Part shown: piece by piece, positions 18,904 to 36,652 of the stretch
Numbering within the stretch: the stretch's first letter is position 1
How the letters are laid out: each line of letters starts with the position of its first letter
The notes under the pieces: model-generated
The model's input: only the letters and a program-made list of their open reading frames with translations
What the model was told of the DNA's origin: nothing
Database searches by the model: none
Made by a program: the position numbers and the translations under genes
Virus record (IMG/VR): IMGVR_UViG_3300029787_000001
Span: 62,001 to 126,000 of that record
Origin: a virus
Strand: one strand, 5' to 3'
Length of the DNA: 64,000 nucleotides

Positions 18904-20180
18904 CAAAAAAGAAAATCTTAGTCCTCTCAGACCACCCCCTATCACCCTCTGGCGTAGGGACTCAAACAAAGTACATGATTGAGGCACTATTGAAGACCGG
19001 TCGCTATCAGTTTGTTTGCCTCGGAGGTGCCGTAAAGCACGGGGACTACACGCCTCAGATGGTCGATCCTTGGGGTGATGATTGGCGCATTTTCCCAGTT
19101 GATGGCTATGGTAACCACGAGATTATTCGCTCTGTGTTACAAAAAGAACGTCCAGACGCCTTGTGGTTTATGACAGACCCCAGATTCTATGGATGGCTTT
19201 GGGAAATTGAAAACGAGGTCCGAGCAAACATCCCCATGGTTTACTACCATGTCTGGGACAACTTCCCCGCCCCACAGTACAACGCTGATTTTTACAACTC
19301 TACAGATGTGGTTGCCTGCATTTCTAAAGTCACACATGCAGTCGTGCAAGATGTGGCGCCAGAAGTAGAGTCTTGCTATCTCCCGCACGCAGTCAATGAA
19401 TCCATCTTCCATCCTGCTAAGACTGATGAAGAAGAAAGAGCACAAGTCATAATGCGCAAAAGGGTTATGGACACATCTACCGCCATTCACCCAAAAAAGA
19501 AAATCTTCTTCTGGAACAACCGTAATGCCCGACGCAAGCAGAGTGGCACCCTTATTTGGTGGTTCAAGGAGTGGCTCGATAAGGTCGGACACGACAAGGC
19601 AACTCTCTTGATGCACACAGATCCTCGCGACCCTCACGGTCAAGATCTGCCACATCTAATCAACCATCTTGGTCTAGATAATGGACAAGTCCTAATGTCC
19701 ACCAAGAAAGTTCCACCCGAAGAACTTGCCAATCTCTACAGAATGGCAGACTACACCATCAACATCTCTGATGCTGAGGGCTTTGGTCTTGCAACTCTTG
19801 AGTCACTTTCTTGCGGAACACCAATCATTGTTAACATGACAGGCGGGCTACAAGAACAGGTAACAGACGGAAAGGATTGGTTTGGCTTCGGCATCGAGCC
19901 TGCATCGAAGACAGTCATCGGCTCTCTGCAAGTGCCCTACATCTATGAGGATCGCATTTCACAGCGAGACTTCGAGAAGACACTTACGAAGGCACTTAAG
20001 AACCCAACAAAGAAATACAGACAAATGGCTTCACAGGGTCGCAGGCACGTGCTAAAATCTTACAACTTTGAGACTTTTGAAAAGTCTTGGATTGATTTAA
20101 TGGACAAAGTCATAGAAGAGCATGGCTCTTGGGAAACAAGACAAAAATACCAACGCTGGCATTTGATGGAGGTAGCGTGA
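18900..20180 (+). CDS. GT4-type (GT-B fold) glycosyltransferase
   Basis: The protein has 426 residues from ATG 18900 (GGAG five bases upstream, ATGA overlap with glnII). MTKKKILVLSDHPLSPSGVGTQ is the N-terminal nucleotide-fold start. The C-terminal half contains NNRNARRKQSGTL and the GT4 donor-site E-x7-E motif DAEGFGLATLESLSCGTPII. Members of this group transfer a sugar from a nucleotide sugar with retention. Its codon use matches the GC-richer flank rather than the AT-rich cluster that follows 21.4 kb. Donor and acceptor are unknown. Confidence 0.9.
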   Translation: MTKKKILVLSDHPLSPSGVGTQTKYMIEALLKTGRYQFVCLGGAVKHGDYTPQMVDPWGDDWRIFPVDGYGNHEIIRSVLQKERPDALWFMTDPRFYGWLWEIENEVRANIPMVYYHVWDNFPAPQYNADFYNSTDVVACISKVTHAVVQDVAPEVESCYLPHAVNESIFHPAKTDEEERAQVIMRKRVMDTSTAIHPKKKIFFWNNRNARRKQSGTLIWWFKEWLDKVGHDKATLLMHTDPRDPHGQDLPHLINHLGLDNGQVLMSTKKVPPEELANLYRMADYTINISDAEGFGLATLESLSCGTPIIVNMTGGLQEQVTDGKDWFGFGIEPASKTVIGSLQVPYIYEDRISQRDFEKTLTKALKNPTKKYRQMASQGRRHVLKSYNFETFEKSWIDLMDKVIEEHGSWETRQKYQRWHLMEVA

Positions 20181-21418
20181 AAAAGAAAGTTTTGCTAAAG
20201 GGTCCTCTACTGACCCGCTCTGGCTATGGAGAACAAGCTCGCTTTGCTCTCCGTTCACTTCGATCTCGTGAAGATCTATTTGAAGTCTTTATTCAGCCTC
20301 TACAGTGGGGCAAGACCTCTTGGGCTTCCGAGATGGATGAAGAGCGTGTCTGGATTGATGAGACCATCGAAAAGACTATCGCTTACGTCCAACAAGGCGG
20401 ACAGTTTGATGTTTCGCTACAAGTGACCATTCCCAACGAGTTCCAGCGACTTGCCCCTATCAATGTCGGCTACACCGCCGGCATCGAGACTACAAAAGTA
20501 GCGCACCAGTGGATTCAGAAAGCAAATGAGATGGACAAGATTATTGTTGTCTCCAACCACTCTAAGCAAGTGTTCGAGAGCACAGAGTACGCCGCTACAA
20601 ACCAACAAACTGGAGAGCAGGTCACCCTGCGCACCCAGACCCCTGTTGAATCTGCCGGCTATCCTGTGAAGACCTATGAAAACCTACCAGAACTAGAACT
20701 CGGTCTATCAACCGCATTCAACTTCTTGACGGTCGCCCAGTTTGGTCCGAGAAAGAACCTCCACAACACTATCAAGTGGTTTATTGAAGAGTTTAGAAAT
20801 GAAGATGTCGGTCTTGTAGTCAAGTCCAACATAGCAAAGAACTCCCTAATGGATCGTAAGAAGCTCCATGGAGATCTGACCCACTTCCTACGTCAACAGG
20901 GAGAGAGACAATGCAAGGTATACCTCCTACACGGCGACATGACTGACGCCGAAATGCACTCCTTGTATTCCAACCAGCAAATCCATGCATTTGTCTCTCT
21001 CCCACATGGCGAAGGCTTTGGTCTACCATTGTTTGAAGCAGCCTACTCAGGTCTTCCTGTGGTCGCTACAGGGTGGTCTGGTCAGCTAGATTTTCTTATT
21101 GATAGCGAAGGTCAAGAACAATTTTATAACGTAGCCTTCGACCTGCAACAAGTCCAGAAAGAGGTTGTTTGGGATGGGGTAATCGTCCCTGACTCCATGT
21201 GGGCTTATGCTCGCGAAGGATCTGCAAAACAACAAATGCGCAAGTGCTACGAGGAAAAAACTGTAGAACGCGACCTCACATATGCACAGAGCCTGACAGA
21301 ACGCTTCTCTGAAGAAAAGATGTATGAGAGGTTTGTCAGCCTGACACAATCACAAGAGGCAGCCGAGATGTCTGAATGGTTGAAAGAACTAGAAGAAGAA
21401 TTGGAAGAATATGAATAA
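20177..21418 (+). CDS. GT4-type glycosyltransferase
   Basis: The protein has 413 residues from GTG 20177 (GGAGG four bases upstream; GTGA overlap with the previous stop). Longer in-frame starts lie inside the upstream gene and lack a ribosome-binding site. It opens KKKVLLKGPLLTRSGYGEQ and has the donor motif GEGFGLPLFEAAYSGLPVV (E-x7-E) at about 280-298, preceded by a GPRKN phosphate-type loop. It is a paralogue-like partner of the preceding transferase, with the C-terminal 60 residues rich in Glu. Substrates are unknown. Confidence 0.9.
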   Translation: MKKKVLLKGPLLTRSGYGEQARFALRSLRSREDLFEVFIQPLQWGKTSWASEMDEERVWIDETIEKTIAYVQQGGQFDVSLQVTIPNEFQRLAPINVGYTAGIETTKVAHQWIQKANEMDKIIVVSNHSKQVFESTEYAATNQQTGEQVTLRTQTPVESAGYPVKTYENLPELELGLSTAFNFLTVAQFGPRKNLHNTIKWFIEEFRNEDVGLVVKSNIAKNSLMDRKKLHGDLTHFLRQQGERQCKVYLLHGDMTDAEMHSLYSNQQIHAFVSLPHGEGFGLPLFEAAYSGLPVVATGWSGQLDFLIDSEGQEQFYNVAFDLQQVQKEVVWDGVIVPDSMWAYAREGSAKQQMRKCYEEKTVERDLTYAQSLTERFSEEKMYERFVSLTQSQEAAEMSEWLKELEEELEEYE

Positions 21419-22250
21419 AATTGTATTTGTCTCAGATTTTTTTATTGAGGACATAGTAGGTGGCGGTGAACTAAACGATTATGAAGTTTATAAATTGTTT
21501 GTTCAAAAAGGATATGAGGTTGGCAGAATTAGAAGCCATATGTTCGCTTCTGACCATCTAGACAAAGATGCATTTTATGTAATTTCCAATTTCATTAATC
21601 TTAATTATCAATTAAGAGAGCTACTACAGGATTACAATTATATAATTTACGAGCATGATCACAAATACATACGCTCTAGAAACCCAGCGCTATACAAAAA
21701 CTTTGAAGCTCCAAAAGACCAGATAATCAATCAGGACTTTTACGATAATGCGGCGGCTGTTTTGTGTCAGTCAAATTTTCACATGGACATAGTAAAAAAA
21801 AACATATGTTTAGATAATATTGTAAGCGTAGGCGGCAATGTCTGGAGTCTAAAATCATTAGATTTTATGAGACAAATAAGTCAAGTAGAAAAAAAAAATA
21901 AAACTTCAATATTACATTCAAATATTGAGCACAAAAATACATTGGGTGCAATAGAATATTGTATTAGAAAGAATGAAAGTTACGAGCTAGTGAGTGATAA
22001 AGATTACTATTCTTTTCTATCTAAGTTAGGCAAAAATAGAAAGTTTGTCTTTATACCAAAAACTCCTGAAACTCTCTCTAGGGTATGCGTCGAAGCCAGA
22101 ATGATGAATATGTCAGTTGTCGTTAACAGTCTGATCGGCGCAAGCAAAGAGCCTTGGTATTCACTAAAGGGCACAGATTTGATTGATTATATGATAGAAA
22201 AAAGGGAAAAAGTTGTAGAAAAAATAATAGGAATCTTCAATGAGCAATAG
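21411..22250 (+). CDS. Probable GT-B glycosyltransferase, divergent
   Basis: The protein has 279 residues, shorter than typical GT4. The N-terminus KIVFVSDFFIEDIVGGGEL is the usual GT-B Rossmann start with a glycine-rich loop. Later YIIYEHDHKY, CQSNFHMDIV and FIPKTPETLSRVCVEARMM (an E-containing donor-site helix) fit the fold. The canonical E-x7-E is incomplete. From here base composition drops sharply (A-rich runs), marking the start of the AT-rich part of the island. It overlaps both neighbours. Donor and acceptor are unknown. Confidence 0.78.
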   Translation: MNKIVFVSDFFIEDIVGGGELNDYEVYKLFVQKGYEVGRIRSHMFASDHLDKDAFYVISNFINLNYQLRELLQDYNYIIYEHDHKYIRSRNPALYKNFEAPKDQIINQDFYDNAAAVLCQSNFHMDIVKKNICLDNIVSVGGNVWSLKSLDFMRQISQVEKKNKTSILHSNIEHKNTLGAIEYCIRKNESYELVSDKDYYSFLSKLGKNRKFVFIPKTPETLSRVCVEARMMNMSVVVNSLIGASKEPWYSLKGTDLIDYMIEKREKVVEKIIGIFNEQ

Positions 22251-22980
22251 ATTTATAATAATGGTGCCGTTCTACAATGTACAAAAATGGATAAAATACA
22301 ATATCGCATCTATTAAAAAACAGAAGTATGATAATTTTATCTGTGTCTTGGTTGATGACATATCCACTGATAACTCTTATGAGGTTGCGAAAAAGATGGT
22401 GGGTGAAGACCCGCGTTTCATTTTGGTCAAAAACACTGAGAAAAAACTAGCTCTAAGAAATATTTATGAAGGTATTGAATTGGCAGATCCTAGCCAAGAA
22501 GATATCATTGTGACTTTGGATGGAGATGATTGGTTTAGCTCTGATGATGTTTTAAGCTATCTCGATGAATTCTATAATCAACAAGATTGTTGGCTCACAT
22601 ATGGCAGCTATTTAGAGTTTCCTAGTGGTCGTAGAGGCAAATTCACCAGACAAATACCCCAGCAGGTTATAGATCTGAATGCTTATAGACAATACGAGTG
22701 GTGTAGCTCACACCTTAGGACGTTTAAATATCACTTATGGTCTAAGATCGAAAAAGAGGATTTATTAGATTCTGAAGGCAACTTTTATAAAATGGCTTGG
22801 GACTTATCTTTTATGTTTCCAATGCTAGAGATGTCAAAAAACAAGTCAAGATTTATAGATAAATGTTTATATACATATAATCTTGATAATCCATTAAACG
22901 ATCATAAGACAGATAATGCTTATCAGGTCAGGCTTGAGATGGAAATTAGAAACAAGCCAAAATATGAGGAAATAATATAA
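22240..22980 (+). CDS. GT2-family glycosyltransferase
   Basis: The protein has 246 residues. A GT-A fold with MVPFYNVQKWIKYNIASIKKQ at the start, LVDDISTDNSYEVA (about 33-46) and the DxD-type metal site TLDGDDWF (about 91-98). These are the hallmarks of inverting GT2 enzymes that use UDP- or other nucleotide sugars. It overlaps the neighbouring genes by 11 bases and 1 base. The C-terminal region (about 135-246) lacks membrane spans, so it is a soluble or peripheral enzyme. The sugar is not predictable. Confidence 0.9.
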   Translation: MSNRFIIMVPFYNVQKWIKYNIASIKKQKYDNFICVLVDDISTDNSYEVAKKMVGEDPRFILVKNTEKKLALRNIYEGIELADPSQEDIIVTLDGDDWFSSDDVLSYLDEFYNQQDCWLTYGSYLEFPSGRRGKFTRQIPQQVIDLNAYRQYEWCSSHLRTFKYHLWSKIEKEDLLDSEGNFYKMAWDLSFMFPMLEMSKNKSRFIDKCLYTYNLDNPLNDHKTDNAYQVRLEMEIRNKPKYEEII

Positions 22981-23789
22981 TGTTAACTTGTGACGTAATG
23001 GGACCTAGTAAAATAGATGGGCATTATCTTGCTGGTCTTGGTAATCAAATGTTTACAATCGCCGCCACCGTGGCATTAGCATTGGATAATGAAGATGTCG
23101 CAGTTTTCCCAGACTTACAAAACAGAGACTGGTTCGGAACATATACAGATAATGTCTTTAGAAAGCTGACGATTGATGGAGATAAAGGGTTTGTAAAATA
23201 TCTATATCAAGAGCCAAGCTGGAAGTTTGCCAAAATACCATATAAAAAGGATCTGTGCTTAAGTGGTTATTTTCAATCAGAGAAATATTTTGCCCACAGA
23301 AGAAAGGAAATATTAAAAGTATTTGAAATTCCTGATTCTATTTTGGGTCACATAAAAGAAAAATATTCTGACATATTTGCAAAACAAAAACTTATTGGAG
23401 TTCATGTAAGAAGAGGTGACTACTTGACACCAACGCTAAGCCAATTTCATCATGCTCAAGCAGTTGACTATTATCACAGAGCCATGAGCTTGTTTGATGA
23501 AGATAGCAACTTTATATTTTTTAGTGACGACATAGAATGGTGTAAACAAAATTTTTCATCTATAAATAACACCCACTTTATAGAAGGAGAGACTGATGTT
23601 GTTGATTTATATTTTATGTCAGTTATGGAACACAATATAATCGCAAACTCTACGTTCTCATGGTGGGGTGCTTGGCTCAACCAAAATCCAGACAAAATAG
23701 TTATTGCTCCACACAAGTGGTATGGTCCTAAAAATTCACACCTAGAAGATAACGATATAATCCCAGAACATTGGAAGATTGTAAAATGA
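22980..23789 (+). CDS. GT11 alpha-1,2-fucosyltransferase-like protein
   Basis: The protein has 269 residues. GT11 motifs are clear: GLGNQMFTIAATVALA (about 20-35), IGVHVRRGDYL (about 139-149, the GDP-fucose-binding H-x-R-R-G-D-Y) and ANSTFSWWGAWLN (about 221-233). These match bacterial FutC/WbsJ-type alpha-1,2-fucosyltransferases, which add fucose to galactose to give an H-antigen-like unit. It overlaps the GT2 gene stop. GDP-fucose could come from the GMD at 32054 with host help. The family call is firm; linkage is inferred from the family. Confidence 0.93.
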   Translation: MLTCDVMGPSKIDGHYLAGLGNQMFTIAATVALALDNEDVAVFPDLQNRDWFGTYTDNVFRKLTIDGDKGFVKYLYQEPSWKFAKIPYKKDLCLSGYFQSEKYFAHRRKEILKVFEIPDSILGHIKEKYSDIFAKQKLIGVHVRRGDYLTPTLSQFHHAQAVDYYHRAMSLFDEDSNFIFFSDDIEWCKQNFSSINNTHFIEGETDVVDLYFMSVMEHNIIANSTFSWWGAWLNQNPDKIVIAPHKWYGPKNSHLEDNDIIPEHWKIVK

Positions 23790-24481
23790 AAATAGCTGTA
23801 CTAAATGTCGCAACTGGCGGATACATTGATTTGTCAAAGCGCCTGTTTGAAAGTATAAAGAGCAACTTTTTAGTTGATCATCAAGTAGACATCTTTTTGT
23901 TTACTGACAGCGATGAGCAATTTGCAGATAATATTAAAAAGTATAATATTAAAAGAAGAGGTTTTCCCGGTGATACACTGCTTAGATATCATTACTTTTT
24001 GCTAGCTGAGAAAGAATTGTTGCAGTATGATTTTCTTTTCTATCTTGACGCAGATTTGTATATAGAGAAGTCAATTGGAGAAGAAATAATTTCTGACATT
24101 GTTGCTGTTCATCATCCGGGCTTCTTTGGAAAAACCAATGGTACCTTTGAGCGACGACAAATATCAACAGCCTTTGTAGATTCAAATATCAATAGCCCTT
24201 ATTTTTGCGGTGGTGTTCAGGGCGGCAGAACGGAACATTATTTAGCAGTTTGCAGAGAGATAAAGAACAACATAAACGTTGATATGTCAAAGGGCGTGAT
24301 GGCGGTGTGGCATGACGAGTCGCATTGGAATCACTTTTTATCAATTAATAAACCAACCCTTGCGCTAGATCCAAGATACTGTTATCCAACTGACGCTCAT
24401 TTTCCATGGATTGAAAACCTCAACGATGATCGCAAAATTATAACTGTAGAAAAAAACGAAGAAGAGATAAGAAAATTATGA
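23786..24481 (+). CDS. GT6-family glycosyltransferase (ABO/alpha-Gal type)
   Basis: The protein has 231 residues from ATG 23786 (GGAAG eight bases upstream; a TTG at 23771 is less likely). FLFYLDADLYI (about 82-92) carries the family's D-x-D, then VAVHHPGFFG (about 106-115), PYFCGGVQGGRTEHYL (about 137-152) and WHDESHWNHFL (about 174-184). This order and spacing is typical of GT6, which includes the human A/B transferases and alpha-1,3-galactosyltransferase. Bacterial and phage members are small like this one. It should add Gal or GalNAc in alpha-1,3 linkage, often next to a fucose. Confidence 0.9.
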   Translation: MKIAVLNVATGGYIDLSKRLFESIKSNFLVDHQVDIFLFTDSDEQFADNIKKYNIKRRGFPGDTLLRYHYFLLAEKELLQYDFLFYLDADLYIEKSIGEEIISDIVAVHHPGFFGKTNGTFERRQISTAFVDSNINSPYFCGGVQGGRTEHYLAVCREIKNNINVDMSKGVMAVWHDESHWNHFLSINKPTLALDPRYCYPTDAHFPWIENLNDDRKIITVEKNEEEIRKL

Positions 24482-25206
24482 ACCCACAACAACAATATAA
24501 AGGTTACCTGTCAGGCAAGAGAGTAGCTGTAGTTGGTCCTTCTAAGAGCGTAATGTTGGCTGAAGATGGTGATTTAATTGATTCTTATGATGTTGTAGTA
24601 AGACTAAATAACATGTTGGAAATTAGCGAGGAGCATCAAAAATACTTTGGTAGTAGAACCGATGTTATATACGCAACGCTAGATGACCCTCCTAAGCAAA
24701 TTGCGCTACAGTGCGCCAGAGCAAAAGTAAAATTTCTATCGTCCTCATATCCCACAGATGAGTGGTTTTTCCAACAACGAATGGCTAGAAATGTTATGTT
24801 TTTGAAGAATGTAAAGCACTTCTCAACCGTTACAATGCCCAGTGAACCTTACTGGACAATAAAAAATGAAATGAGTTCTAGACCAAATACGGGTTTCTGT
24901 GCTATAATGGATTTATTGTCTTCGGACTTAAAGGAACTTTTCATAGTTGGAATTGATTTTTATAGAAACATAATGATTGATTCTGAAGATGCTTATTTTA
25001 GTGATTATTTTTGCCAATGGTCGGATAAAAAGAGTAAACAATTTTTAGAGATAGAATACGATGGGCATGATCATCATAACCCGGATAACGATTTTAGGCA
25101 TTTTAAGTACAACATGTACCTAAAAGATGATAGAATCAAAGTAACCTCTTTCATAGAAAAAATTCTAATTAATAGTGCATATGAAAGTTTGTCAAACTGT
25201 ATATAA
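24478..25206 (+). CDS. GT29-like (sialyltransferase-type) glycosyltransferase
   Basis: The protein has 242 residues, ATGA-coupled to the GT6 gene. GKRVAVVGPSKSV (about 12-24) and SYDVVVRLNN (about 37-46) match the L-sialylmotif (V-V-G-x-S...D-x-V-x-R-x-N). RPNTGFCAIMDLLSS (about 135-149) fits the S-motif with its T-G region. HDHHNPDNDFRHFK near the end has the late His typical of this group. GT29 enzymes transfer sialic acid from CMP-Neu5Ac. A CMP-sugar synthetase gene 1.7 kb downstream agrees with this. The family match is by motif only, so the donor is inferred. Confidence 0.82.
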   Translation: MNPQQQYKGYLSGKRVAVVGPSKSVMLAEDGDLIDSYDVVVRLNNMLEISEEHQKYFGSRTDVIYATLDDPPKQIALQCARAKVKFLSSSYPTDEWFFQQRMARNVMFLKNVKHFSTVTMPSEPYWTIKNEMSSRPNTGFCAIMDLLSSDLKELFIVGIDFYRNIMIDSEDAYFSDYFCQWSDKKSKQFLEIEYDGHDHHNPDNDFRHFKYNMYLKDDRIKVTSFIEKILINSAYESLSNCI

Positions 25207-25228
25207 GTTTTAAATTAGGAGTCAAATT

Positions 25229-26209
25229 TTGTTAGATATAGAAAACATTGAATCTAAATTCAATTCTGTTATTAATACCTGTGAGTTTAGAGAGTTACAA
25301 ACTGTTTATAATAAAGCAAAGCACGTTTTTTTCTTTGGTCATGGTGGCAACATGAGTATCGCTGAGCATGCAGCCATAGACGCCTCTAGGCTTACAAACA
25401 AGAACGTGTACGCCCCCGGTGGTGGCGTGATAGTAACCTCTATCCAAGGAGATACTAGTTTTAACGATTGGATACAAAGCTGGCTAGAAATTAGAACTAG
25501 AAATCTAAATTTTGATGAGTGCCTTGCGATTGGGCTATCATGCTCTACTAGTGGCGCCTCATCAGACTGTCTCGCAACTGCGTTAAACTGGGCAGCCGAA
25601 GCTGGCATTCCCAGTGCTCTTTGGGCAGCCCAGCCAAAAGAAAAAGGAATCAATTCAAAGGTAGTCCAAATAATACAGCATGCCAAGCACTACCATACAT
25701 CTGAAATACTGTCTTTGACCATGACTTATGAATTAATTCATGGTGCTGGATTCACATGCCCCAGCATATCCAAGAAGGCTCAGCAAAGAAGATTTGAAAA
25801 GCTAGGAATTGAATCAGAAGTAGAAATACATAATAAAGAAGTTCCTCCGGGCATGGAGCATCAATTGTCAAATCTGGCAATTGATTTTGACGGTGTTGTG
25901 CACACATTTGATAAGGGATGGCACGATGGTACGTGCTACGGTGAGCCAATAGAAGGAGCAGTAGAGGCTATAAAAAGCTTATCTGAACACTGGAACATTA
26001 TTATTTTTTCTGCCAAGGTTAGACCTGATAGACCGCTTGTAAACGGTATGACTGGATACGAGTTGGTAGATGAATGGCTAGAGAAGCATGGAGTTCGCAA
26101 CTGTGTTTCTGAGATAACTCATGAAAAGCCACGAGCTAAATTTTACATCGATGATAAGGCTATTGAATTTAAAAACAATTGGGATGATATCCTTGAGAGG
26201 TTAAAGTGA
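25229..26209 (+). CDS. Fusion of SIS sugar-isomerase domain and HAD-type hydrolase domain
   Basis: The protein has 326 residues from TTG 25229, fixed by AGGAG seven bases upstream. Residues about 1-190 are a SIS domain like GmhA/DiaA: FGHGGNMSIAEHAAIDASR and IGLSCSTSGASSDCL bind the phosphosugar. Residues about 212-326 are a HAD-like unit: LAIDFDGVVHTFDKGW with the catalytic DxD, IIFSAK, and AKFYIDDKAIEF. A phosphosugar isomerase joined to a phosphatase suggests two steps on one sugar phosphate, as GmhA and GmhB do for heptose, but the HAD domain is of the small phage type, not clearly GmhB. The end overlaps the next gene. Confidence 0.87.
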   Translation: MLDIENIESKFNSVINTCEFRELQTVYNKAKHVFFFGHGGNMSIAEHAAIDASRLTNKNVYAPGGGVIVTSIQGDTSFNDWIQSWLEIRTRNLNFDECLAIGLSCSTSGASSDCLATALNWAAEAGIPSALWAAQPKEKGINSKVVQIIQHAKHYHTSEILSLTMTYELIHGAGFTCPSISKKAQQRRFEKLGIESEVEIHNKEVPPGMEHQLSNLAIDFDGVVHTFDKGWHDGTCYGEPIEGAVEAIKSLSEHWNIIIFSAKVRPDRPLVNGMTGYELVDEWLEKHGVRNCVSEITHEKPRAKFYIDDKAIEFKNNWDDILERLK

Positions 26210-26871
26210 AAAAAGTAACTGCCGTTATTCCAGTCCGAAAGGGCTCCGTAAGAGTTAAAAACAAGAATCTTAAACCGTTTGCAGACACAAATTTACTAGA
26301 ACTAAAGATTCGACAGCTTAAGCAAGTAAATCTTCTAGATGAGATTGTTGTTAGTTCTGACTGCGATAAGATGCTTTCTTTGGCACATAGTCTTGGAGTG
26401 GGTGTTCATAAAAGAGAAGACTATTATGCTAGCTCAGAGGCAACAAATTCAGAGTTTTTTGAAAATATTGGAAAGTCTATTGACGCTAGCTACATTATGT
26501 ACAGCCCGGTGACCTGCCCTTTGATATCTTTAGAGACATATTTTGACTGCTTGTCGTCTTTTAAGAATGACCAACAATTAAAAAACTTAGTCACCGCTCG
26601 TAGAGTAAACCATCACATGTGGCTTGATGGCAAGCCTCTAAATTACGATATCGCAAACTCTCCAAATAGCCAGGATTTGCCAAATATTCATGCTATCACG
26701 TATGGTATCTCTATAATTTCAAGAAAAGAAATGATAGAATATAAAAACATTGTGAACGAAAACCCAACATTCAAAGTATTAGATGAAATAGAATCTATGG
26801 ATATTGATACGGAATTTGATTTTATGGTAGCCGAGATGATTTACAATAAACTATACAGAGACATAAAATGA
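26206..26871 (+). CDS. neuA: CMP-sugar (acylneuraminate-type) cytidylyltransferase
   Basis: The protein has 221 residues from GTG 26206, overlapping the previous stop. AVIPVRKGSVRVKNKNLKPF is the NeuA/KdsB-family P-loop-like CTP site (R-x-G-S...K-N). Then EIVVSSDCDKM, YYASSEATNSEFFENI and YSPVTCPLIS follow the order seen in CMP-Neu5Ac and CMP-pseudaminic or legionaminic acid synthetases. It would activate a nonulosonic acid with CTP for the nearby GT29-like transferase. No sialic acid synthase (NeuB) is seen in the window, so the acid would have to come from the host or from genes outside it. Confidence 0.85.
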   Translation: MKKVTAVIPVRKGSVRVKNKNLKPFADTNLLELKIRQLKQVNLLDEIVVSSDCDKMLSLAHSLGVGVHKREDYYASSEATNSEFFENIGKSIDASYIMYSPVTCPLISLETYFDCLSSFKNDQQLKNLVTARRVNHHMWLDGKPLNYDIANSPNSQDLPNIHAITYGISIISRKEMIEYKNIVNENPTFKVLDEIESMDIDTEFDFMVAEMIYNKLYRDIK

Positions 26872-28085
26872 AAAGAAATAGTTGTCTTGTGTGCGGCTCT
26901 AAGTCGCTTGAGATTATTGTTGATCTTGGCAATCATGCTTTTGCAGATACATTTGTCCCTATTGACAAGAAAAATGATCAACTAGTTACATACAATTTAT
27001 CATGTGCAATCTGCCATGATTGTGGCAATATTCAAACTTGTTCAAAGACAAATCCAAGTGATAGATATTCGTTGTTTGATTATTCCTATACATCATCTAA
27101 TTCAAGAACTTCACAAAACCATTGGAAGAGTTTTTGCCTTGACGTTGCTAAGAAAATTAAATTAAATAAAAAAGCTTTTGTCATAGAGGTCGGCTCAAAT
27201 GATGGCTATCTTCTTGAACAGTTTAAGAAAAACTTCGACGCTGATGTTCTAGGTATCGATGCATCCAAGCACGTCTCGGATATAGCAAATCAAAATGGCA
27301 TTGAGACAAAAGTTGCAATCTTTGATAGTAAAGTATCAAAGGGTGTGTTAAACAATTACGGCATGGCAGATTTAATAGTTGCTAATAATGTTTTTAATCA
27401 CTCTGAAGATCCTGTAGATTTTGCAAAGGCGGTGGCTGCTTTATTGAAAAATAACGGTGTCTTTGTTTTTGAAGTTCCTTATTGGAAGTCCGCTGTTGAT
27501 TCTGAAAAGATAGACCAAATTTACCATGAGCACGTTAGTTATATGACTGTAAAAAGTGTTAAGAAGACGCTGGAACTATCTGGGCTAAATATCATCGATG
27601 TGCAGGTTGTTGATTACCATGGTGGCTCATTGAGAGTATATTGCGGACCGTCTGTGTCTAAAGAACCACAAGTGGTTGATGATATGATAAATAATGAGGA
27701 CGCATCCGGCATCTTCAAAAAAGACACTTACAAGCTGTTATTGGAAAAAATTGACAATAAAAAGATAAACTTAATGAGAAAAATCTATGATATCAAAAAG
27801 TCTGGTGGCTCTCTCATATGTGTTGGTGCCGCCGCCAAGGGCAATACTTTTTTGACATTTTTAAATTTAGATAATTCAATCATAGATTATGTGACCGATG
27901 CATCTGAATACAAGCAAGGCAAATTCACACCTCTTACGTCAATACCAATTTGTGGCGATGATATTTTTAGAGAATATAATGAAGTATATGCAATAATACT
28001 ATCTTGGAATATTTCTGGTAAATTAAAAGAAAAGTTACATGAAATTAATTCCAAAATTAAATTTTTAGTTTTTGATGATTTTTAA
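26868..28085 (+). CDS. Sugar C-methyltransferase (zinc-binding, three-domain type)
   Basis: The protein has 405 residues. The N-terminal zinc domain has C6, C9 (CLVCGS) and CAICHDCG (about 44-51). The SAM domain follows with VIEVGSNDGYLLEQF (about 104-118) and ANNVFNHSEDP, then HEHVSYMT (catalytic region) and a C-terminal domain with GGSLICVGAAAKGNTFL (about 311-327). This three-part layout is that of TylC3/NovU-type enzymes that methylate carbon 3 or 5 of nucleotide-linked keto-deoxysugars. It is ATGA-coupled to neuA. The precise sugar is unknown. Confidence 0.9.
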   Translation: MKRNSCLVCGSKSLEIIVDLGNHAFADTFVPIDKKNDQLVTYNLSCAICHDCGNIQTCSKTNPSDRYSLFDYSYTSSNSRTSQNHWKSFCLDVAKKIKLNKKAFVIEVGSNDGYLLEQFKKNFDADVLGIDASKHVSDIANQNGIETKVAIFDSKVSKGVLNNYGMADLIVANNVFNHSEDPVDFAKAVAALLKNNGVFVFEVPYWKSAVDSEKIDQIYHEHVSYMTVKSVKKTLELSGLNIIDVQVVDYHGGSLRVYCGPSVSKEPQVVDDMINNEDASGIFKKDTYKLLLEKIDNKKINLMRKIYDIKKSGGSLICVGAAAKGNTFLTFLNLDNSIIDYVTDASEYKQGKFTPLTSIPICGDDIFREYNEVYAIILSWNISGKLKEKLHEINSKIKFLVFDDF

Positions 28086-28097
28086 TCGGAGTAATAA

Positions 28098-28508
28098 ATG
28101 ATAAAAAGAAACGCTTGGAACGATATTAGAGCACCCCTTGAGTTCCATGAAGATGACAGGGGTAAGATAGCTGACATTTTTTATAAGGGTTCCATAGAAC
28201 ATGTTGCCATAATTAAATCTAAACCCGGCTCTATTCGAGGCAATCACTACCATGAGGAATCCACTCAGCATATGTTGATTACAAAAGGAAGTTTAGAATA
28301 TTGGTATAAAAAATTAGATACAGACGAAGAACCACAGTGTGTTATAATGCAAGAGGGTGATATAATATCTACCCCTCCCTTTGAAGTTCACGCACTTAAA
28401 ATTATCGATGAAAACGAATTCATTGTTTTTAGTGAGGGTCGTCGCGGCGGTCAAGATTATGAAAGCGATACAATAAGAATTGATGGCAACATTATTGGAG
28501 GATTGTGA
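28098..28508 (+). CDS. Cupin-domain protein (sugar-modification type)
   Basis: The protein has 136 residues. A single cupin barrel: GSIRGNHYHEESTQHMLITKG (G-x-H-x-H-E pattern, about 35-56) and GDIISTPPFEVHALKI supplying the late His. Such cupins include sugar epimerases, ketoisomerases and CapF-type reductase domains in O-antigen and capsule operons. SD-like CGGAG lies ten bases before ATG 28098. It sits between two methyltransferase genes. The reaction cannot be read; a role on a nucleotide-sugar intermediate is inferred from its neighbours. Confidence 0.82.
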   Translation: MIKRNAWNDIRAPLEFHEDDRGKIADIFYKGSIEHVAIIKSKPGSIRGNHYHEESTQHMLITKGSLEYWYKKLDTDEEPQCVIMQEGDIISTPPFEVHALKIIDENEFIVFSEGRRGGQDYESDTIRIDGNIIGGL

Positions 28509-28509
28509 T

Positions 28510-29079
28510 ATGAGCGAACCTATCAGACTTCATTTGGGCTGCGGTCATAGGTACTTGCCGGGCTTCGTGCATGTAGATCAGGACCCACTTGAGCATGTGG
28601 AACATGTTCTTGATATCAAAGACTTGTCTATTTTTGAGGACAATAGCGTAGATGAAATCTACTCTTGTGGAGTTGTTGTTTATTTTGATAGATTCCAAAT
28701 CAAAGACGTTCTCAAAGAATGGAGTCGCGTTTTAAAGAGCGGAGGAAAACTTAGAATTTCCATTGCAGATTTTGAAAAAATGGTGCAAGTCTACCTAGAT
28801 AGCGGAAAAGTTCTTGAGTCTCGTGGCATTCTTGGTCCGCTATTTGGTAGATGGGAGATTACTGAAGACGGAGAATCAAAAATGATTTATCAAACCACGA
28901 CATATGATTTTAAGTCTTTAGAAAAAGTATTGATAGGCTGCGGCTTTGCTTCGGTTGAAAGATACGATTGGCGAGATTTCTTACCGGAGGGCTTTGATGA
29001 TTATTCCAGAGCCTACATCCCCCATATGGATGAAACCGGACTACATTTATCTCTAAATGTGGTATGTGAAAAAAGATGA
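28510..29079 (+). CDS. SAM-dependent methyltransferase (class I)
   Basis: The protein has 189 residues from ATG 28510, chosen because GGAGG (28498-28502) is seven bases upstream; the longer frame from 28480 would start inside the cupin gene. RLHLGCGHRYLPGFVHVDQDP (about 6-26) is motif I with the SAM loop. The next parts match a Methyltransf_11-like fold: DLSIFEDNSVDEIYSCGVVVYF and LKEWSRVLKSGGKLRISIADF (motif III). It probably methylates a sugar or another small acceptor made in this cluster. It overlaps the next gene by four bases. Confidence 0.87.
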   Translation: MSEPIRLHLGCGHRYLPGFVHVDQDPLEHVEHVLDIKDLSIFEDNSVDEIYSCGVVVYFDRFQIKDVLKEWSRVLKSGGKLRISIADFEKMVQVYLDSGKVLESRGILGPLFGRWEITEDGESKMIYQTTTYDFKSLEKVLIGCGFASVERYDWRDFLPEGFDDYSRAYIPHMDETGLHLSLNVVCEKR

Positions 29080-29543
29080 AATCTGTAACCAACAATAAAC
29101 TCAGCAGTGATTGCTGGTGGCCACCGGGCTATAATGTTCAGCCACACAGAATTATGATGGCAAATCTTAATTTTGTCACTGATTCTATTGTTGACAGGGT
29201 TAACGTTGAATCTAGAACAATACTGTCACTCAAACCTACCTTGATAAAGGAGACACCTCATTATCAGTATGCTATGGGAAATATTCAGCCCTATAAAGAG
29301 TATTTGGAAAAATGCAAACATATAACATGGGCGAGAGCAGCCATCAATCAAGAACACATAGACCTCCAGTTTATGTTTGATAAATTTGATAAAATTTTAA
29401 ATACTGATCTGTCTTATTTGGACCCACCGCACCAAGATAAATATATTATCATAAATCGAAATAAACAAATAATTGATGGCTTACACCGAGCAGTTGCTCT
29501 GATGAGTCAAGGCATAGAGGAAGTGCCAATAGCTTTAGTATAG
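29076..29543 (+). CDS. ParB-like domain protein, unknown role
   Basis: The protein has 155 residues, ATGA-coupled to the preceding methyltransferase. The C-terminal 30 residues (YIIINRNKQIIDGLHRAVALMSQGIEEVPIAL) follow the ParB/sulfiredoxin-like pattern, with a D-G-x-H-R nucleotide-binding turn between two strands. The N-terminal two thirds (SDCWWPPGYNVQPHRIMM, HITWARAAI) is not recognised. Such short proteins also occur in phage and bacterial glycan islands. The role is unknown; nothing suggests plasmid partition here. Confidence 0.65.
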   Translation: MKSVTNNKLSSDCWWPPGYNVQPHRIMMANLNFVTDSIVDRVNVESRTILSLKPTLIKETPHYQYAMGNIQPYKEYLEKCKHITWARAAINQEHIDLQFMFDKFDKILNTDLSYLDPPHQDKYIIINRNKQIIDGLHRAVALMSQGIEEVPIALV

Positions 29544-29552
29544 GAATTCATT

Positions 29553-30245
29553 GTGCTTTTACCTTTGATAAATAATGACAAAAGATTTATAGTATGCTGG
29601 AATGCAAAAGCTGGCTGTACTGCGGTTAAACGATGGTATTTGGGAACAATGGGTGTCAACCCTGATGAGGTTAATCCGCACAAAGTAATAGCAGCCAATG
29701 CTCCACATATTAGCCCCACGCAAATACAACATCATTATGGAGATTATTATAAATTTATAGTCTGTAGAAATCCATGGAAAAGAATAGTAAGCTATTACAA
29801 AAATAAAAAAGTTGCTGTTTGGTGGAAAAATAAGACATGGCCAATAGACACGAGAGTCAGGAACTTGAATAGTGAAGACTTCACGTTCAGACAGTTAGTG
29901 TATTATGTGTGCCAAACTCCAGATCATTTTTTGGAACAACATATTCAAAGCCAAACCAGTCAATTAGGCGACATAGCTTTTAATAGCGTAGTAAAATTAG
30001 AGAACTTCAGTTCAGATATGAATGAGGTTTGTGATATACTAGGAATAAGCTATAGAAATTTTTCAAATCCAAACAAGACATTAGAAACCACAAACAAGGT
30101 GAATGTTAGTGATTTAAATCCTAAAGAATTTACTAACGACAACATGCCATCTTATGAGTGCTTTTACGATGATGAATTAAGAAATATGATTTTTGAAAAG
30201 TTTAAAAAAGATATAGAATACTTCAATTACAAATTTGAGAATTAA
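29553..30245 (+). CDS. Sulfotransferase-family protein
   Basis: The protein has 230 residues from GTG 29553 (AGGAA six bases upstream). CWNAKAGCTAVKRWYL (about 14-29) resembles the 5'-phosphosulfate-binding loop of carbohydrate sulfotransferases (Sulfotransfer_2 type), and FIVCRNPWKRIVSYY (about 68-82) is the 3'-phosphate-binding motif with the R-N-P-x-x-R signature. The reaction would move sulfate from PAPS to a glycan hydroxyl. It lies between glycan-building genes. Sulfation of the phage-directed glycan is inferred from this context. Confidence 0.88.
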   Translation: MLLPLINNDKRFIVCWNAKAGCTAVKRWYLGTMGVNPDEVNPHKVIAANAPHISPTQIQHHYGDYYKFIVCRNPWKRIVSYYKNKKVAVWWKNKTWPIDTRVRNLNSEDFTFRQLVYYVCQTPDHFLEQHIQSQTSQLGDIAFNSVVKLENFSSDMNEVCDILGISYRNFSNPNKTLETTNKVNVSDLNPKEFTNDNMPSYECFYDDELRNMIFEKFKKDIEYFNYKFEN

Positions 30246-30246
30246 T

Positions 30247-30660
30247 ATGAAAAAGATTTTTTCAAAGGTAGAAAAAGGGCTGTTATTACATGCCATCCAT
30301 CGTTATGAAGATATAACCGAGAAGAGAGCAGACATAAGCCCAGAAGAAGAATTTTTACAGGTCTCCACCTTTCGTTTAAAAAAAGATAAGACCTTCCGGG
30401 CTCACTATCACATAGAAAACATAAAAGAGACGAATCGAACGCAAGAATCTTGGGTTGTAATAAAAGGCTCTGTTAAAGTTATGTTATATGATATTGACAA
30501 GAGGCTAATCTCAGAAGAGATATTAAAGCAAGGTGATTGCACTGTTACTTTTCGTGGCGGACACAATTATCTATGTCTAGAGGACGATACGGTCGTTTAT
30601 GAATACAAAACAGGACCCTACCAAGGTCAAAAATTAGATAAAGAGTTCATATATGTTTGA
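30247..30660 (+). CDS. Cupin-domain protein
   Basis: The protein has 137 residues from ATG 30247; a TTG at 30235 would overlap the sulfotransferase end and lacks support. The core is a cupin: FRAHYHIENIKETNRTQESWVVIKG-type strand pattern with H-x-H, followed by KQGDCTVTFRGGHNYL carrying the late His. It is similar in size to the cupin at 28098 but not a close copy. It may be an isomerase or epimerase of a sugar intermediate, or a sensor. It overlaps the GT10 gene by eight bases. Confidence 0.78.
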   Translation: MKKIFSKVEKGLLLHAIHRYEDITEKRADISPEEEFLQVSTFRLKKDKTFRAHYHIENIKETNRTQESWVVIKGSVKVMLYDIDKRLISEEILKQGDCTVTFRGGHNYLCLEDDTVVYEYKTGPYQGQKLDKEFIYV

Positions 30661-31465
30661 TAAAACAAAAATTTGCCTCGTGCAAAACACATTAGGTCCA
30701 AATGTCTACGGTGGTCTTTTTACTCAGGACGAAAATACTGATGTGGTAGCATATGTTGACTATGCAATTGGTAACGCTAAAAAAGAAGATCAAAGATTAA
30801 AAGTGGCCATATTGGTTGAGCCCGCCGTCGTTAATTCAAGTTTATATAATTGGATTGAAAATAATCATTCTCTATTTGATCTTGTTTTGACTCACAACAA
30901 GGCACTGTCTGAAAAAAATGAAAAGTTTAAATACTACCCAGTCTGGCCTAGAATTTGGATACCTAAACCCGATAGAAAAATCTATGACAAGACAAAAAAG
31001 GTATCTGCTATATTTTCTAACAGAAATCAAACAATTGGGCACAAAACTAGGCACGTTATAGCCAAGCAGTTCTCTAGTTTGATTGATTTGTATGGCAAGG
31101 GGTATAACCCAATAGAAACAAAAACAGAGGGCATTTCTGACTACATGTATCATGTTGTAGTAGAGAATGAGCAGCGTGGATATGCTAGTGAGAAAGTAAA
31201 TGATTCTTTTTGTTGCGGCTCTATACCAATATACTGGGGTGATGATACATCAAATGTGTTGGACTTTTATAACAAAGATGGCATTTTGATGTTTGAGACT
31301 ATGGAAGAATTAGAAAATATTTTACTAAACATTGCATCAGAGACGTATTACAATAGTAAAAAAGAAGCCATAGAGGAAAATTTCAATAAAGCAGCCAACT
31401 TGTCTTTAGACAAAATTTATTGGGATTATGGTATAGAAAATTTCTTAAGACAGAGAGGGTTCTAA
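30653..31465 (+). CDS. GT10 alpha-1,3/4-fucosyltransferase-like protein
   Basis: The protein has 270 residues. The C-terminal GT10 signature is clear at about 166-196: YHVVVENEQRGYASEKVNDS then FCCGSIPIYWG, matching the family's F-E-N...Y-x-T/S-E-K...A-F/S-x-x-G-x-V/I-P-V/I-Y-W-G donor motif. These enzymes add fucose in alpha-1,3 or 1,4 linkage from GDP-fucose (Lewis-type). The chain is shorter than eukaryotic members but similar to bacterial ones such as those of Helicobacter. With GT11 it gives two different fucosyl linkages. The TAATG overlap couples it to the next gene. Confidence 0.9.
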   Translation: MFDKTKICLVQNTLGPNVYGGLFTQDENTDVVAYVDYAIGNAKKEDQRLKVAILVEPAVVNSSLYNWIENNHSLFDLVLTHNKALSEKNEKFKYYPVWPRIWIPKPDRKIYDKTKKVSAIFSNRNQTIGHKTRHVIAKQFSSLIDLYGKGYNPIETKTEGISDYMYHVVVENEQRGYASEKVNDSFCCGSIPIYWGDDTSNVLDFYNKDGILMFETMEELENILLNIASETYYNSKKEAIEENFNKAANLSLDKIYWDYGIENFLRQRGF

Positions 31466-32061
31466 TGAGTTTTGATGTTGTAGAAGAATTTGAAAAAGAA
31501 ATTGCTAATTATTTTGGTGCGCCTCATGCCGTAGCAGTAGATTGCTGTACCCACGGGCTTGAGTTATGCTTGAGACACCAAAAGATAAATCACTACACCA
31601 CCCCCAAGAGAACCTATATATCTGTGCCGCTCTTAGCCAGAAAATTAAATATCACTTTTGATTGGAGAGACGAAAACTGGCAAGAATACTACTGTTTAGG
31701 GGGCACCAATATTGTTGATGCTGCGGTTTTATGGAGGGAAAACTCTTATGTGCCGGGCATGTTTATGTGCTTAAGTTTTCAGTTCAGAAAACATTTGAGT
31801 CTCGGAAGAGGCGGAATGATATTAACAGATGATGAAGAATCTGCTATAATATTGAAAAAGATGTCTTACGATGGAAGGTTGCCTAATATTCCATGGCGTC
31901 AACAAAATATTAACACTATGGGATATCACTATTACATGACTCCCGAAACAGCACAAAGAGGCTTAGACAAACTTACAGATGCCAAAACAACAGTTCCAAA
32001 AAAATGGTCTGTTGAGGATTGGCCAGATTTAACCCACATGGAGATTTTTAAGAATGACTAA
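31465..32061 (+). CDS. Compact DegT/DnrJ/EryC1/StrS aminotransferase-like protein
   Basis: The protein has 198 residues from ATG 31465 (GAGAGGG upstream; TAATG overlap); a longer frame from 31420 lies inside the previous gene. It keeps the core of a PLP sugar aminotransferase: YFGAPHAVAVDCCTHGLELCL (cofactor phosphate loop), NIVDAAVLW (PLP Asp), and SFQFRKHLSLGRGGMILT with the Schiff-base Lys. Normal members have 360-400 residues; the C-terminal small domain is missing here and the middle is compressed. It may be a minimal form, an inactive binding protein or a remnant. The frame is intact. Confidence 0.8.
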   Translation: MSFDVVEEFEKEIANYFGAPHAVAVDCCTHGLELCLRHQKINHYTTPKRTYISVPLLARKLNITFDWRDENWQEYYCLGGTNIVDAAVLWRENSYVPGMFMCLSFQFRKHLSLGRGGMILTDDEESAIILKKMSYDGRLPNIPWRQQNINTMGYHYYMTPETAQRGLDKLTDAKTTVPKKWSVEDWPDLTHMEIFKND

Positions 32062-33031: not shown

Positions 33032-33243
33032 ATATTTCAGTGGGAAGCCTTATAAAGTGGTATGAAGAATATTCAGATGGCATCGTTAAAGATGCTGGTA
33101 CTGGGATATTGGTACAAATAAGAGGACCGCGCCCATATGGAAACAGTTACAAAGTTTATAGAAATAAATTTAAAGACTTTATCTGGGTATCTCAAACATG
33201 CATAGAGAAGATAGAATATGAAGATATTGATAACAGGACATAA
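33028..33243 (+). CDS. SH3-like mini-protein inside the sugar island
   Basis: The protein has 71 residues from TTG 33028 (GGGAG about eight bases upstream, overlapping the gmd stop); ATG 33013 is a possible longer start. NISVGSLIKWYEEY opens the domain, followed by GTGILVQIRG, YKVYRNKF and FIWVSQTCIEKIEYE. The G-S-L-I-K-W start and the late strand-I-E are shared with the mini-proteins at 1325 and 5257. It is the only non-enzyme-like gene between gmd and the epimerase. The function is unknown. Confidence 0.7.
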   Translation: MNISVGSLIKWYEEYSDGIVKDAGTGILVQIRGPRPYGNSYKVYRNKFKDFIWVSQTCIEKIEYEDIDNRT

Positions 33244-34054
33244 AGGATATATTGGTAGTAAACTTTTTACAAAATTAAACAATGAAACAAACATTGTTCA
33301 TGGTATTGATTTAAAAGATGGAAAAGATGTAATCAAGGATCTACCAGATGCAAATTGTGATTATGTTTTCCACCTCGCAGCCCTTCCTAGCGTGCAGCAA
33401 TCAGTAGATGCGCCTTCCGACACATTCAGAAACAATGCTTATTCTACCTCGGTGCTTCTTGAGTGGGCTAAAAAACATAATGTAAAGCGCGTTATCTTTT
33501 CTTCCTCTGCCGCCGCTGCCAATGTAACATCACCTTATGGGCTTCATAAAAGAATTTCAGAACAAGAGTGCAAGCTATATTCAGATTTATATGGATTAGA
33601 CACTGTTTGTCTCCGTTATTACAATGTCTATTCTGAAGATCAAAAATATGGTGGTTCACACTCCACAGCGATAAGTGCTTGGATGCAGATGATTCGTGAA
33701 GGCAGAGCACTTCGTATAGATGGAGATGGAGAGCAGACAAGAGATTTTGTACATGTTGACGATGTTGTCTCTGCTAACATTTTTTGCATGAATCAAGGTA
33801 AACTATTTGCTGGCGCAATATATGACGTTGCTAGCGGTGCTTCATGCTCCCTAAATTCAGCTAGAGAGATAATAAAAAGAAAACACAATGTAACTTGGAG
33901 CGAAAATCCAGAAAGAAAAGGTGACATTAAGTATTCACACTCAGACATTTCTGGGTTATTATCTCTTGGATGGAAGCCGTCTATTACTATAGAAGATGGC
34001 TTACAAAGATGTTTTTCAAAGGATAATTTATGTGCGGAATCTTTGGCTCAGTAG
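33218..34054 (+). CDS. NAD-dependent epimerase (UDP-sugar 4-epimerase-like)
   Basis: The protein has 278 residues. An extended short-chain dehydrogenase with GHKGYIGSKL (about 7-16), FHLAALPSVQQSV (about 50-62), SSSAAAANV and SPYGLHKR (Y-x-x-x-K, about 106-113), RYYNVYSEDQ and GDGEQTRDFVHVDD (about 168-181). The last motif is typical of UDP-glucose/UDP-GlcNAc 4-epimerases. It is shorter than usual (about 310-340). A GDP-fucose synthase role cannot be excluded, but the motifs favour 4-epimerase, which could supply the UDP-Gal or UDP-GalNAc that a GT6 enzyme needs. It overlaps glmS by 25 bases. Confidence 0.88.
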   Translation: MKILITGHKGYIGSKLFTKLNNETNIVHGIDLKDGKDVIKDLPDANCDYVFHLAALPSVQQSVDAPSDTFRNNAYSTSVLLEWAKKHNVKRVIFSSSAAAANVTSPYGLHKRISEQECKLYSDLYGLDTVCLRYYNVYSEDQKYGGSHSTAISAWMQMIREGRALRIDGDGEQTRDFVHVDDVVSANIFCMNQGKLFAGAIYDVASGASCSLNSAREIIKRKHNVTWSENPERKGDIKYSHSDISGLLSLGWKPSITIEDGLQRCFSKDNLCAESLAQ

Positions 34055-36336: not shown

Positions 36337-36652
36337 GCTTGAAATGGTGCTTTCACTTATTTTGTTGGTGTCATTCGGCATCAATATTTTACTGTTTGTG
36401 TATTCTCGCAATGTAGCACAAAAGCTTGTCTTAATCTCAGTAGAGATAGATGACATGCGCGCTGCGGCTGCTAGCTTTGCCTCCCACGTCAAGTCTGTCT
36501 ACGAGCTTGAAATGTTCTATGGCGACCAAACCTTGCAAGCACTAATGGATCATGCCCGTTCATTCCGAGAATACATGGACGAGTTTGATTTTATCTACAT
36601 ACCAGAGGAAGAAGACTCAGATGCCGAGACGAAACAAATCGAAGAAATCTAA
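36320..36652 (+). CDS. Membrane-anchored coiled-coil protein, unknown function
   Basis: The protein has 110 residues. Residues about 8-29 (MVLSLILLVSFGINILLFVYS) form one membrane span at the N-terminus. The remainder is a soluble helix (VLISVEIDDMRAAAASFASHV...) with an acidic end (PEEEDSDAETKQIEEI). Predicted topology has a short N-terminus in the periplasm or cytoplasm and a cytoplasmic helical tail. It overlaps the sigma-factor gene by 32 bases. Possibly a membrane-associated assembly or regulatory factor; the family is not recognised. Confidence 0.75.
   Translation: MDFMIRLEMVLSLILLVSFGINILLFVYSRNVAQKLVLISVEIDDMRAAAASFASHVKSVYELEMFYGDQTLQALMDHARSFREYMDEFDFIYIPEEEDSDAETKQIEEI

What the first reader, a model, noticed from the sequence alone, without database searches (positions are those of the whole stretch)
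22980..31465. A phage cassette with the transferase families that build blood-group and Lewis-type glycans
Within 8.5 kb the phage encodes GT11 (alpha-1,2-Fuc), GT6 (ABO/alpha-Gal type), a GT29-like sialyltransferase, GT10 (alpha-1,3/4-Fuc) and a sulfotransferase. These five families together make H, A/B, sialyl-Lewis and sulfo-Lewis structures in animals. Each match rests on visible family motifs. The inference is that the phage makes or remodels a fucosylated, sialylated glycan on the host surface or on its own virion, perhaps to block superinfection or change receptor type. I know of single GT6-like genes in marine phages, but not of this full set.
Basis: partly seen in the sequence, partly recalled or inferred. 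Interest (0 to 1): 0.9.

Follow-up and report, generated by a model that had tools for sequence, protein, structure and literature searches.

The report
Phage glycan cassette with animal-type transferases
An uncultivated T4-like phage carries a conserved ~15-kb block of about 19 sugar genes, including intact relatives of the enzymes that finish blood-group and sialylated glycans in animals, with parts of the pathways for their activated-sugar donors; it probably rewrites the sugar coat of the infected bacterium, but the actual glycan is unknown.

Summary
The gene families are real. GT11, GT6, GT10 and Sulfotransfer_2 pass Pfam cut-offs and keep their catalytic motifs. The weakest call, GT29, was confirmed by a 26-member phage profile that matches human ST6Gal1, ST3Gal1 and ST8Sia3, and by a confident AlphaFold model whose 18 best PDB matches are all animal sialyltransferases. 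It is conserved gene for gene in two other phage contigs (46-87% protein identity) under purifying selection, in a swappable locus between phoH and a sigma-like/baseplate block.

It is built from modules. GT11 accompanies GT6 in 56 of 72 other viral GT6 loci. GT29 genes lie near CMP-sugar synthetases in 29 of 41 viral loci, against 0 of 72 GT6 loci. Only the window and the two contigs combine all five families.

'Blood-group/Lewis antigens' is over-read: no Fcl, NeuB, KdsA or APS kinase was found in the record, the CMP-sugar is unidentified, and methyl-, C-methyl- and amino-sugar genes point to a bespoke O-antigen-like glycan. Most likely it remodels the host surface (superinfection or receptor change), a richer variant of the known cyanophage 'LPS clusters'.

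The parts
18900..20180 (+). GT4 glycosyltransferase a (constant left edge of the locus)
   Evidence: Pfam Glycos_transf_1 54.6 bits; same position in many related contigs
20174..21418 (+). GT4 glycosyltransferase b (constant left edge)
   Evidence: Pfam Glycos_transf_1 33.6 bits
21411..22250 (+). conserved cassette protein of unknown family, possibly a glycosyltransferase
   Evidence: no Pfam family at cut-off; 56% identity in both sister cassettes
22240..22980 (+). GT2 glycosyltransferase
   Evidence: Pfam Glycos_transf_2 71.5 bits
22980..23789 (+). GT11 (alpha-1,2-fucosyltransferase family)
   Evidence: Pfam 100.5 bits; HxRRxD motif (H142, R144, R145, D147) and N223/S224 invariant in 10 phage homologues
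23786..24481 (+). GT6 (ABO/alpha-Gal family), DXD type
   Evidence: Pfam 111.8 bits; BoGT6a 5e-34, human GTA/GTB 1e-24; D88/D90, WHDES E178 and K223 invariant
24478..25206 (+). GT29-like sialyltransferase-fold glycosyltransferase
   Evidence: Pfam 23.6 bits; profile and fold matches to human GT29 enzymes; L, S and C-terminal His motifs
25229..26209 (+). SIS-domain plus HAD-phosphatase-like protein (phosphosugar isomerase/phosphatase)
   Evidence: PHROG phosphoheptose isomerase family 5e-15 on the C-terminal part, weak BT0820-HAD match; SIS part by inspection; conserved beside the CMP synthetase in many phages
26206..26871 (+). CMP-sugar synthetase, NeuA/PseF type
   Evidence: CTP_transf_3 48.6 bits; PseF 67 bits, below cut-off; PpNeuA 2e-13, human CMAS 6e-5
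26868..28085 (+). C-methyltransferase (Methyltransf_13/23/14 architecture)
   Evidence: Methyltransf_14 111.5 bits
28098..28508 (+). cupin sugar enzyme A
   Evidence: Polysacc_synt_C 46 bits
28510..29079 (+). class I methyltransferase
   Evidence: Methyltransf_11 31 bits
29076..29543 (+). small conserved cassette protein, unassigned
   Evidence: no Pfam; 67-70% identity in sister cassettes
29553..30245 (+). carbohydrate-type sulfotransferase (Sulfotransfer_2)
   Evidence: Pfam 71 bits; PAPS-site-like motifs NAKAGCTAVK and RNPWKRIVSYY seen in the sequence
30247..30660 (+). cupin B (WbuC family)
   Evidence: NCBIfam TIGR04366 43.5 bits, cut-off 42
30653..31465 (+). GT10 (alpha-1,3/4-fucosyltransferase family)
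   Evidence: Pfam 26.4 bits; profile hits FucTA 5e-17, HpFucT 5e-13, FUT9 2e-12; E171/N172/E180/K181 invariant
31465..32061 (+). short (198 aa) DegT aminotransferase-like protein
   Evidence: DegT_DnrJ_EryC1 68 bits
32054..33031 (+). GDP-mannose 4,6-dehydratase (GDP-deoxyhexose supply)
   Evidence: Pfam 383 bits; TIGR01472 366 bits, cut-off 415; 86-87% identity in sister cassettes
33218..34054 (+). GalE-like UDP-sugar 4-epimerase
   Evidence: Epimerase 147 bits; best NCBIfam galE 98 bits, below cut-off

Best explanation
This is a swappable surface-glycan cassette at a fixed locus of a T4-like phage family. Its soluble enzymes make part of the activated sugars in the host cytoplasm (a GDP-6-deoxyhexose precursor from GMD, UDP-Gal/GalNAc from the GalE-like epimerase, a CMP-nonulosonate-type sugar from the NeuA/PseF-like synthetase) and add them, with a sulfate and methyl groups, as a branch on a glycan that the host already builds. 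GT11 plus GT6 form one functional pair (GT11 makes an alpha-1,2-fucosylated acceptor, GT6 caps it), GT29 plus SIS-HAD plus CMP synthetase a second, and sulfotransferase plus GT10 a third. The host's own export machinery would carry the product to LPS or capsule, changing the receptor and so excluding superinfecting phages, or altering grazer recognition. Shown: families, intact motifs, conservation, selection, module linkage, locus swapping. Inferred: donor identities, order of reactions, host-surface target, benefit to the phage.
For: Families, motifs, fold. Complete 19-gene order conserved in two other contigs; dN/dS 0.02-0.11 in the 13 of 18 genes where it could be estimated. Same flanks (phoH/17146/GT4a/GT4b left, sigma-like/37292 right) with different inner gene sets in contigs such as L053, L057, L076, L083, L084 and L098, as in bacterial O-antigen loci; L017-L019 share the right flank. 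GT29 near CMP synthetase in 29/41 loci vs 0/11 GT6 loci and 0/72; NeuB beside GT29 and CMP synthetase in L059 and L066; where GT29 is absent the SIS-HAD/CMP module neighbours a weakly MptE-like protein, a family that also appears in the GT29 fold search. GT11 with GT6 in 56/72 loci. No transmembrane segment in any cassette protein and no flippase- or polymerase-like multispan protein in the record. Prior inference of polymorphic surface-glycan clusters in cyanophages (PMC7824862, PMC3037559).
Against: No biochemical or expression data. The acceptor is unknown. Fcl, NeuB, KdsA-type synthase and APS kinase were not found in the 191-kb record, so fucose, nonulosonate and PAPS must come from the host or the sugars differ. 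The host is unknown, so the presence of a suitable LPS or capsule cannot be checked. The same soluble enzymes could act on a virion protein.
Confidence: 0.6

Rival explanations
1. The cassette decorates the virion: soluble transferases glycosylate a phage structural protein (tail fibre, baseplate, capsid) in the cytoplasm, changing adsorption or hiding the particle.
For: All enzymes lack transmembrane segments and no flippase is encoded; the locus lies just upstream of very large tail/baseplate-type genes; virion glycosylation is proposed for mycobacteriophages (PMC11256854, listed).
Against: The deoxy-, methyl- and CMP-sugar genes and the O-antigen-like swapping between relatives fit a polysaccharide better; cyanophage clusters of this type are read as surface-glycan clusters (PMC7824862).
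Confidence: 0.2
2. One reading: the phage makes H/A/B, sialyl-Lewis or sulfo-Lewis-like structures.
For: All terminal families are present and intact; GT11 and GT6 are linked as expected for H then A/B; GT6 carries a CGG triplet with the Gly of A-type transferases (plus general ABO knowledge); bacterial BoGT6a does make an A-antigen-like product from 2'-fucosyllactose (PMC3961637).
Against: These families are not specific to animal antigens in bacteria; no clear Fcl or NeuB in the record; extra C-methyl, methyl, amino and cupin sugar genes; nothing shows a lactosamine acceptor.
Confidence: 0.12
3. The cassette makes a small glycosylated metabolite or remodels an intracellular target rather than a surface or virion glycan.
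For: Methyltransf_13/14 C-methyltransferases, cupins and DegT proteins also occur in secondary-metabolite sugar pathways; such a role was proposed for a second cyanophage cluster (PMC7824862).
Against: Characterised GT10, GT11, GT6 and GT29 enzymes act on oligosaccharides (general knowledge); no aglycone synthesis gene was recognised.
Confidence: 0.05
4. The genes are non-functional filler for headful packaging ('stuffer DNA', a possibility raised for cyanophage LPS genes).
For: Raised as an open possibility in PMC3037559.
Against: 19 intact ORFs in fixed order in three contigs; dN/dS 0.02-0.11 where estimable; conserved catalytic residues.
Confidence: 0.02

Closest known systems
Cyanophage 'LPS' clusters (P-SSM2, S-SSM7, S-SM2, S-SCSM1; Sullivan 2010 PMC3037559, Iyer 2021 PMC7824862, PMC9602691)
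   Same: T4-like phage; cluster with GMD, epimerases, GT2, GT1/GT4-type, GT11 and GT6 genes; in P-SSM2 one such cluster also lies near phoH and tRNAs; polymorphic between relatives
   Different: no phage in the annotated collection has a detectable relative of this GT29 and the sulfotransferase has only one remote match there; no NeuA-type module is described in the passages read
GT11-GT6 pairs of Bellamy, S-CAM9, B23, S-8S55 and other Synechococcus phages
   Same: GT11 directly followed by GT6
   Different: followed by other sugar genes; 30-38% protein identity; no GT29/CMP module
Animal GT29 sialyltransferases (ST6Gal1, ST3Gal1, ST8Sia3)
   Same: fold, L and S motifs, a C-terminal His
   Different: 12-18% identity, TM about 0.5, shorter, no membrane anchor, donor and acceptor unknown; the profile also matches GT42 CstII at 5e-5
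Bacteroides ovatus GT6a (BoGT6a)
   Same: catalytic-domain-only GT6, WHDES motif, E = 5e-34
   Different: metal-binding DAD instead of NAN, as in most phage GT6 counted (79 DXD vs 2 NXN hits, duplicates included)
Bacterial O-antigen/capsule biosynthesis loci
   Same: constant flanks with exchangeable sugar genes
   Different: no flippase or polymerase candidate; carried in a phage genome

Membership tests
GT6 | GT6 profile match and WHDES/Glu active-site region | tested here: met
   Pfam 111.8 bits; BoGT6a 5e-34; E178 invariant
GT6 | retaining alpha-Gal/GalNAc transfer | not testable with these tools
   needs an enzyme assay
GT11 | profile match and HxRRxD plus NSTFSWW motifs | tested here: met
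   Pfam 100.5 bits; motif residues invariant; no solved GT11 relative found
GT10 | profile match and EN...EK donor-site motif | tested here: met
   Pfam 26.4 bits; FUT9 1.8e-12 with the phage profile; E171, N172, E180, K181 invariant
GT29 | sialylmotifs L and S and sialyltransferase fold | tested here: met
   25 of 26 phage homologues match PF00777; profile hits ST6Gal1 3e-7; model pLDDT 90.7 with the 18 best fold matches all GT29
GT29 | catalytic His of motif VS | tested here: inconclusive
   a conserved C-terminal His is seen in the phage alignment, but equivalence to the animal catalytic base was not tested residue by residue
GT29 | CMP-sialic acid donor | not testable with these tools
   context supports a CMP-sugar; identity unknown
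CMP-nonulosonate synthetase (NeuA/PseF) | CTP_transf_3 domain, nearer NeuA/PseF than KdsB | tested here: met
   PseF 67 bits vs best KdsB 32.5 bits; PpNeuA 2e-13; PseF is below its curated cut-off, so the sugar is not assigned
Carbohydrate sulfotransferase (Sulfotransfer_2) | profile match and PAPS-binding motifs | tested here: met
   Pfam 71 bits; motifs by inspection; structure model low-confidence and its fold search not significant
Complete GDP-L-fucose pathway | GMD plus Fcl | tested here: not met
   GMD present; only below-cut-off SDR matches to Fcl; the record may be incomplete
Complete sialic/nonulosonate pathway | NeuB-type synthase present | tested here: not met
   no PF03102 in the record; the record may be incomplete
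Wzx/Wzy-type O-antigen assembly | multispan flippase and polymerase | tested here: not met
   no candidate by hydropathy scan

The most novel reading that the evidence does not exclude
A phage lineage has assembled a working terminal-glycan pathway that produces a fucosylated, CMP-nonulosonate-capped and sulfated glycan of blood-group/sialyl type, with phages as a large unrecognised reservoir of GT29 and DXD-type GT6 enzymes from which cellular ones may have been exchanged.
Probability: 0.12. Interest if true: 0.85.

Novelty: new variant of a known kind. Interest (0 to 1): 0.52.

Why it matters
Whether phage 'LPS genes' do anything is an open question: the 2010 comparison of T4-like cyanophages left it undecided between function and stuffer DNA (PMC3037559). 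Here a 19-gene cassette is kept intact, in order and under strong purifying selection across three divergent contigs, and sits in a locus whose contents are exchanged between relatives, which makes the question testable gene by gene. It also shows GT29-type enzymes to be frequent in uncultivated phages (88 relatives found) and physically tied to CMP-sugar synthetases, which offers small soluble GT29 enzymes and a new setting for the history of a family known mainly from animals.

Tried and rejected
Single-protein GT29 searches of phages, IMG/VR and PDB gave nothing; only the alignment-based searches worked. A genome scan with the GT29 alignment found only L-motif matches in Nesterenkonia and Kuenenia, so no cellular donor was identified. 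The GT10 single-sequence viral scan found nothing. Nucleotide search against phages found no match. Host: the terminase is about equally far from those of Flavobacterium, Microcystis and uncultured phages; a Shine-Dalgarno signal argues against Bacteroidota; not settled. The KdsB-type reading of the CMP synthetase was considered and is less likely. The sulfotransferase structure model was too poor to use. dS was saturated for five genes, so no ratio is given for those.
Full report
What is there. The window is bases 62001-126000 of a 191-kb virus record of T4-like organisation; its terminase matches those of T4-like phages. GT11, GT6 and the sulfotransferase are clear. GT10 and GT29 pass Pfam cut-offs by only 2.5 and 0.6 bits, so both were tested again. 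A profile of 11 phage GT10 homologues matches FucTA (5e-17), H. pylori FucT (5e-13) and FUT9 (2e-12). A profile of 26 phage GT29 homologues matches ST6Gal1 (3e-7), ST3Gal1 (2e-6), GT42 CstII (5e-5) and ST8Sia3 (8e-5); 25 of the 26 match PF00777 on their own; and the AlphaFold model (pLDDT 90.7, pTM 0.90) finds animal GT29 enzymes in ranks 1-18 of the PDB.

Extent and conservation. The stated interval cuts through a longer unit. Two other IMG/VR contigs (3300021197_001902 and 3300030109_005543) hold the same 19 genes in the same order, from GT4a (18900) to the epimerase (34054), at 46-87% identity. Between those two contigs dN/dS is 0.02-0.11 for the 13 of 18 genes with an unsaturated estimate. 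GlnII glutamine synthetase and GlmS, at the two edges in the window, were not found in the sister cassettes.

A swappable locus. Genes left of the cassette (PhoH, 16412, 17146, GT4a, GT4b) and right of it (36082, 36320, a sigma-like protein at 36621, 37292) recur in at least a dozen related contigs, while what lies between differs. This resembles bacterial O-antigen loci. In P-SSM2 one LPS cluster also lies near phoH and tRNAs (PMC3037559); the window has tRNAs at 10142 and 13719.

Modules. (a) GT11-GT6: in 56 of 72 other viral loci centred on GT6 a GT11 lies within the fetched DNA; the pair is also adjacent in isolated cyanophages. Since BoGT6a acts on 2'-fucosyllactose (PMC3961637), a GT11-then-GT6 order is a natural inference. 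(b) GT29-CMP synthetase: 29 of 41 distinct GT29 loci have a CMP-synthetase homologue within 10 kb, none of 11 or 72 GT6 loci does (Fisher p about 1e-17; the loci are related to each other, so the p-value overstates the evidence). NeuB lies near both in L059 and L066. Where the SIS-HAD/CMP pair occurs without GT29, a weakly MptE-like protein is the neighbour, and MptE-like proteins follow GT29 in the fold searches. (c) Sulfotransferase and GT10, together with GT29, CMP synthetase, C-methyltransferase, cupins, DegT and GMD, recur in L054-L056. The five reader families together were seen only in the window and the two sister contigs.

Donors. GMD makes GDP-4-keto-6-deoxymannose; the second SDR is nearest GalE, not Fcl. 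The CMP synthetase is nearest PseF and NeuA. NeuB, KdsA-type synthase and APS kinase were not detected. So fucose, nonulosonate and PAPS are inferred from the transferase families and would need host enzymes, or the true sugars differ. The GT6 triplet CGG resembles the GalNAc-using type (with general ABO knowledge); this is a weak prediction.

Mechanism. No cassette protein has a hydrophobic segment and the record shows no flippase or polymerase candidate. The enzymes are thus probably cytoplasmic and must act on a host lipid-linked glycan or on a phage protein. I favour remodelling of host LPS/capsule (0.6), because of the sugar-synthesis content and the O-antigen-like swapping; virion decoration is the main rival (0.2).

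Novelty. Phage surface-glycan clusters and phage GT6, GT11 and GT10 are known. A GT29 annotation exists for an uncultured Caudovirales protein and one viral GT29 call is reported from coral (PMC11656804). What appears new is the structural support for phage GT29, its linkage to CMP-sugar genes, its frequency in uncultivated phages, and the five-family cassette. I rate it a new variant of a known kind.

Noticed in passing
window 17914-18903 and 34030-35850: GlnII-type glutamine synthetase (506.7 bits, cut-off 500) and full-length GlmS (592.7 bits, cut-off 381) sit at the two edges of the cassette and were not found in the sister cassettes; together they would supply amino-sugar nitrogen.
   Followed up: partly
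viral loci: Phage GT6 genes mostly keep the metal-binding DXD motif (79 DXD vs 2 NXN hits, duplicates included), opposite to the NXN rule described for bacterial GT6 (PMC3961637).
   Followed up: partly
L053, L061, L064, L075: Phage contigs carry GT29 with CMP-synthetase-cupin fusions, class III aminotransferases and dehydroquinate-synthase-like genes, suggesting further CMP-sugar pathways.
   Followed up: partly
L127, L128: Arrays of four to five GT29-like ORFs in one viral locus.
   Followed up: no
window 31465-32061: A 198-aa DegT-like protein, about half normal length, conserved at this size in several related phages.
   Followed up: no
L005 2970-4616 and L004 16940-18058: The same phage appears to encode a GroEL-like and an IMP-dehydrogenase-like protein, judged from the sequence only.
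   Followed up: no
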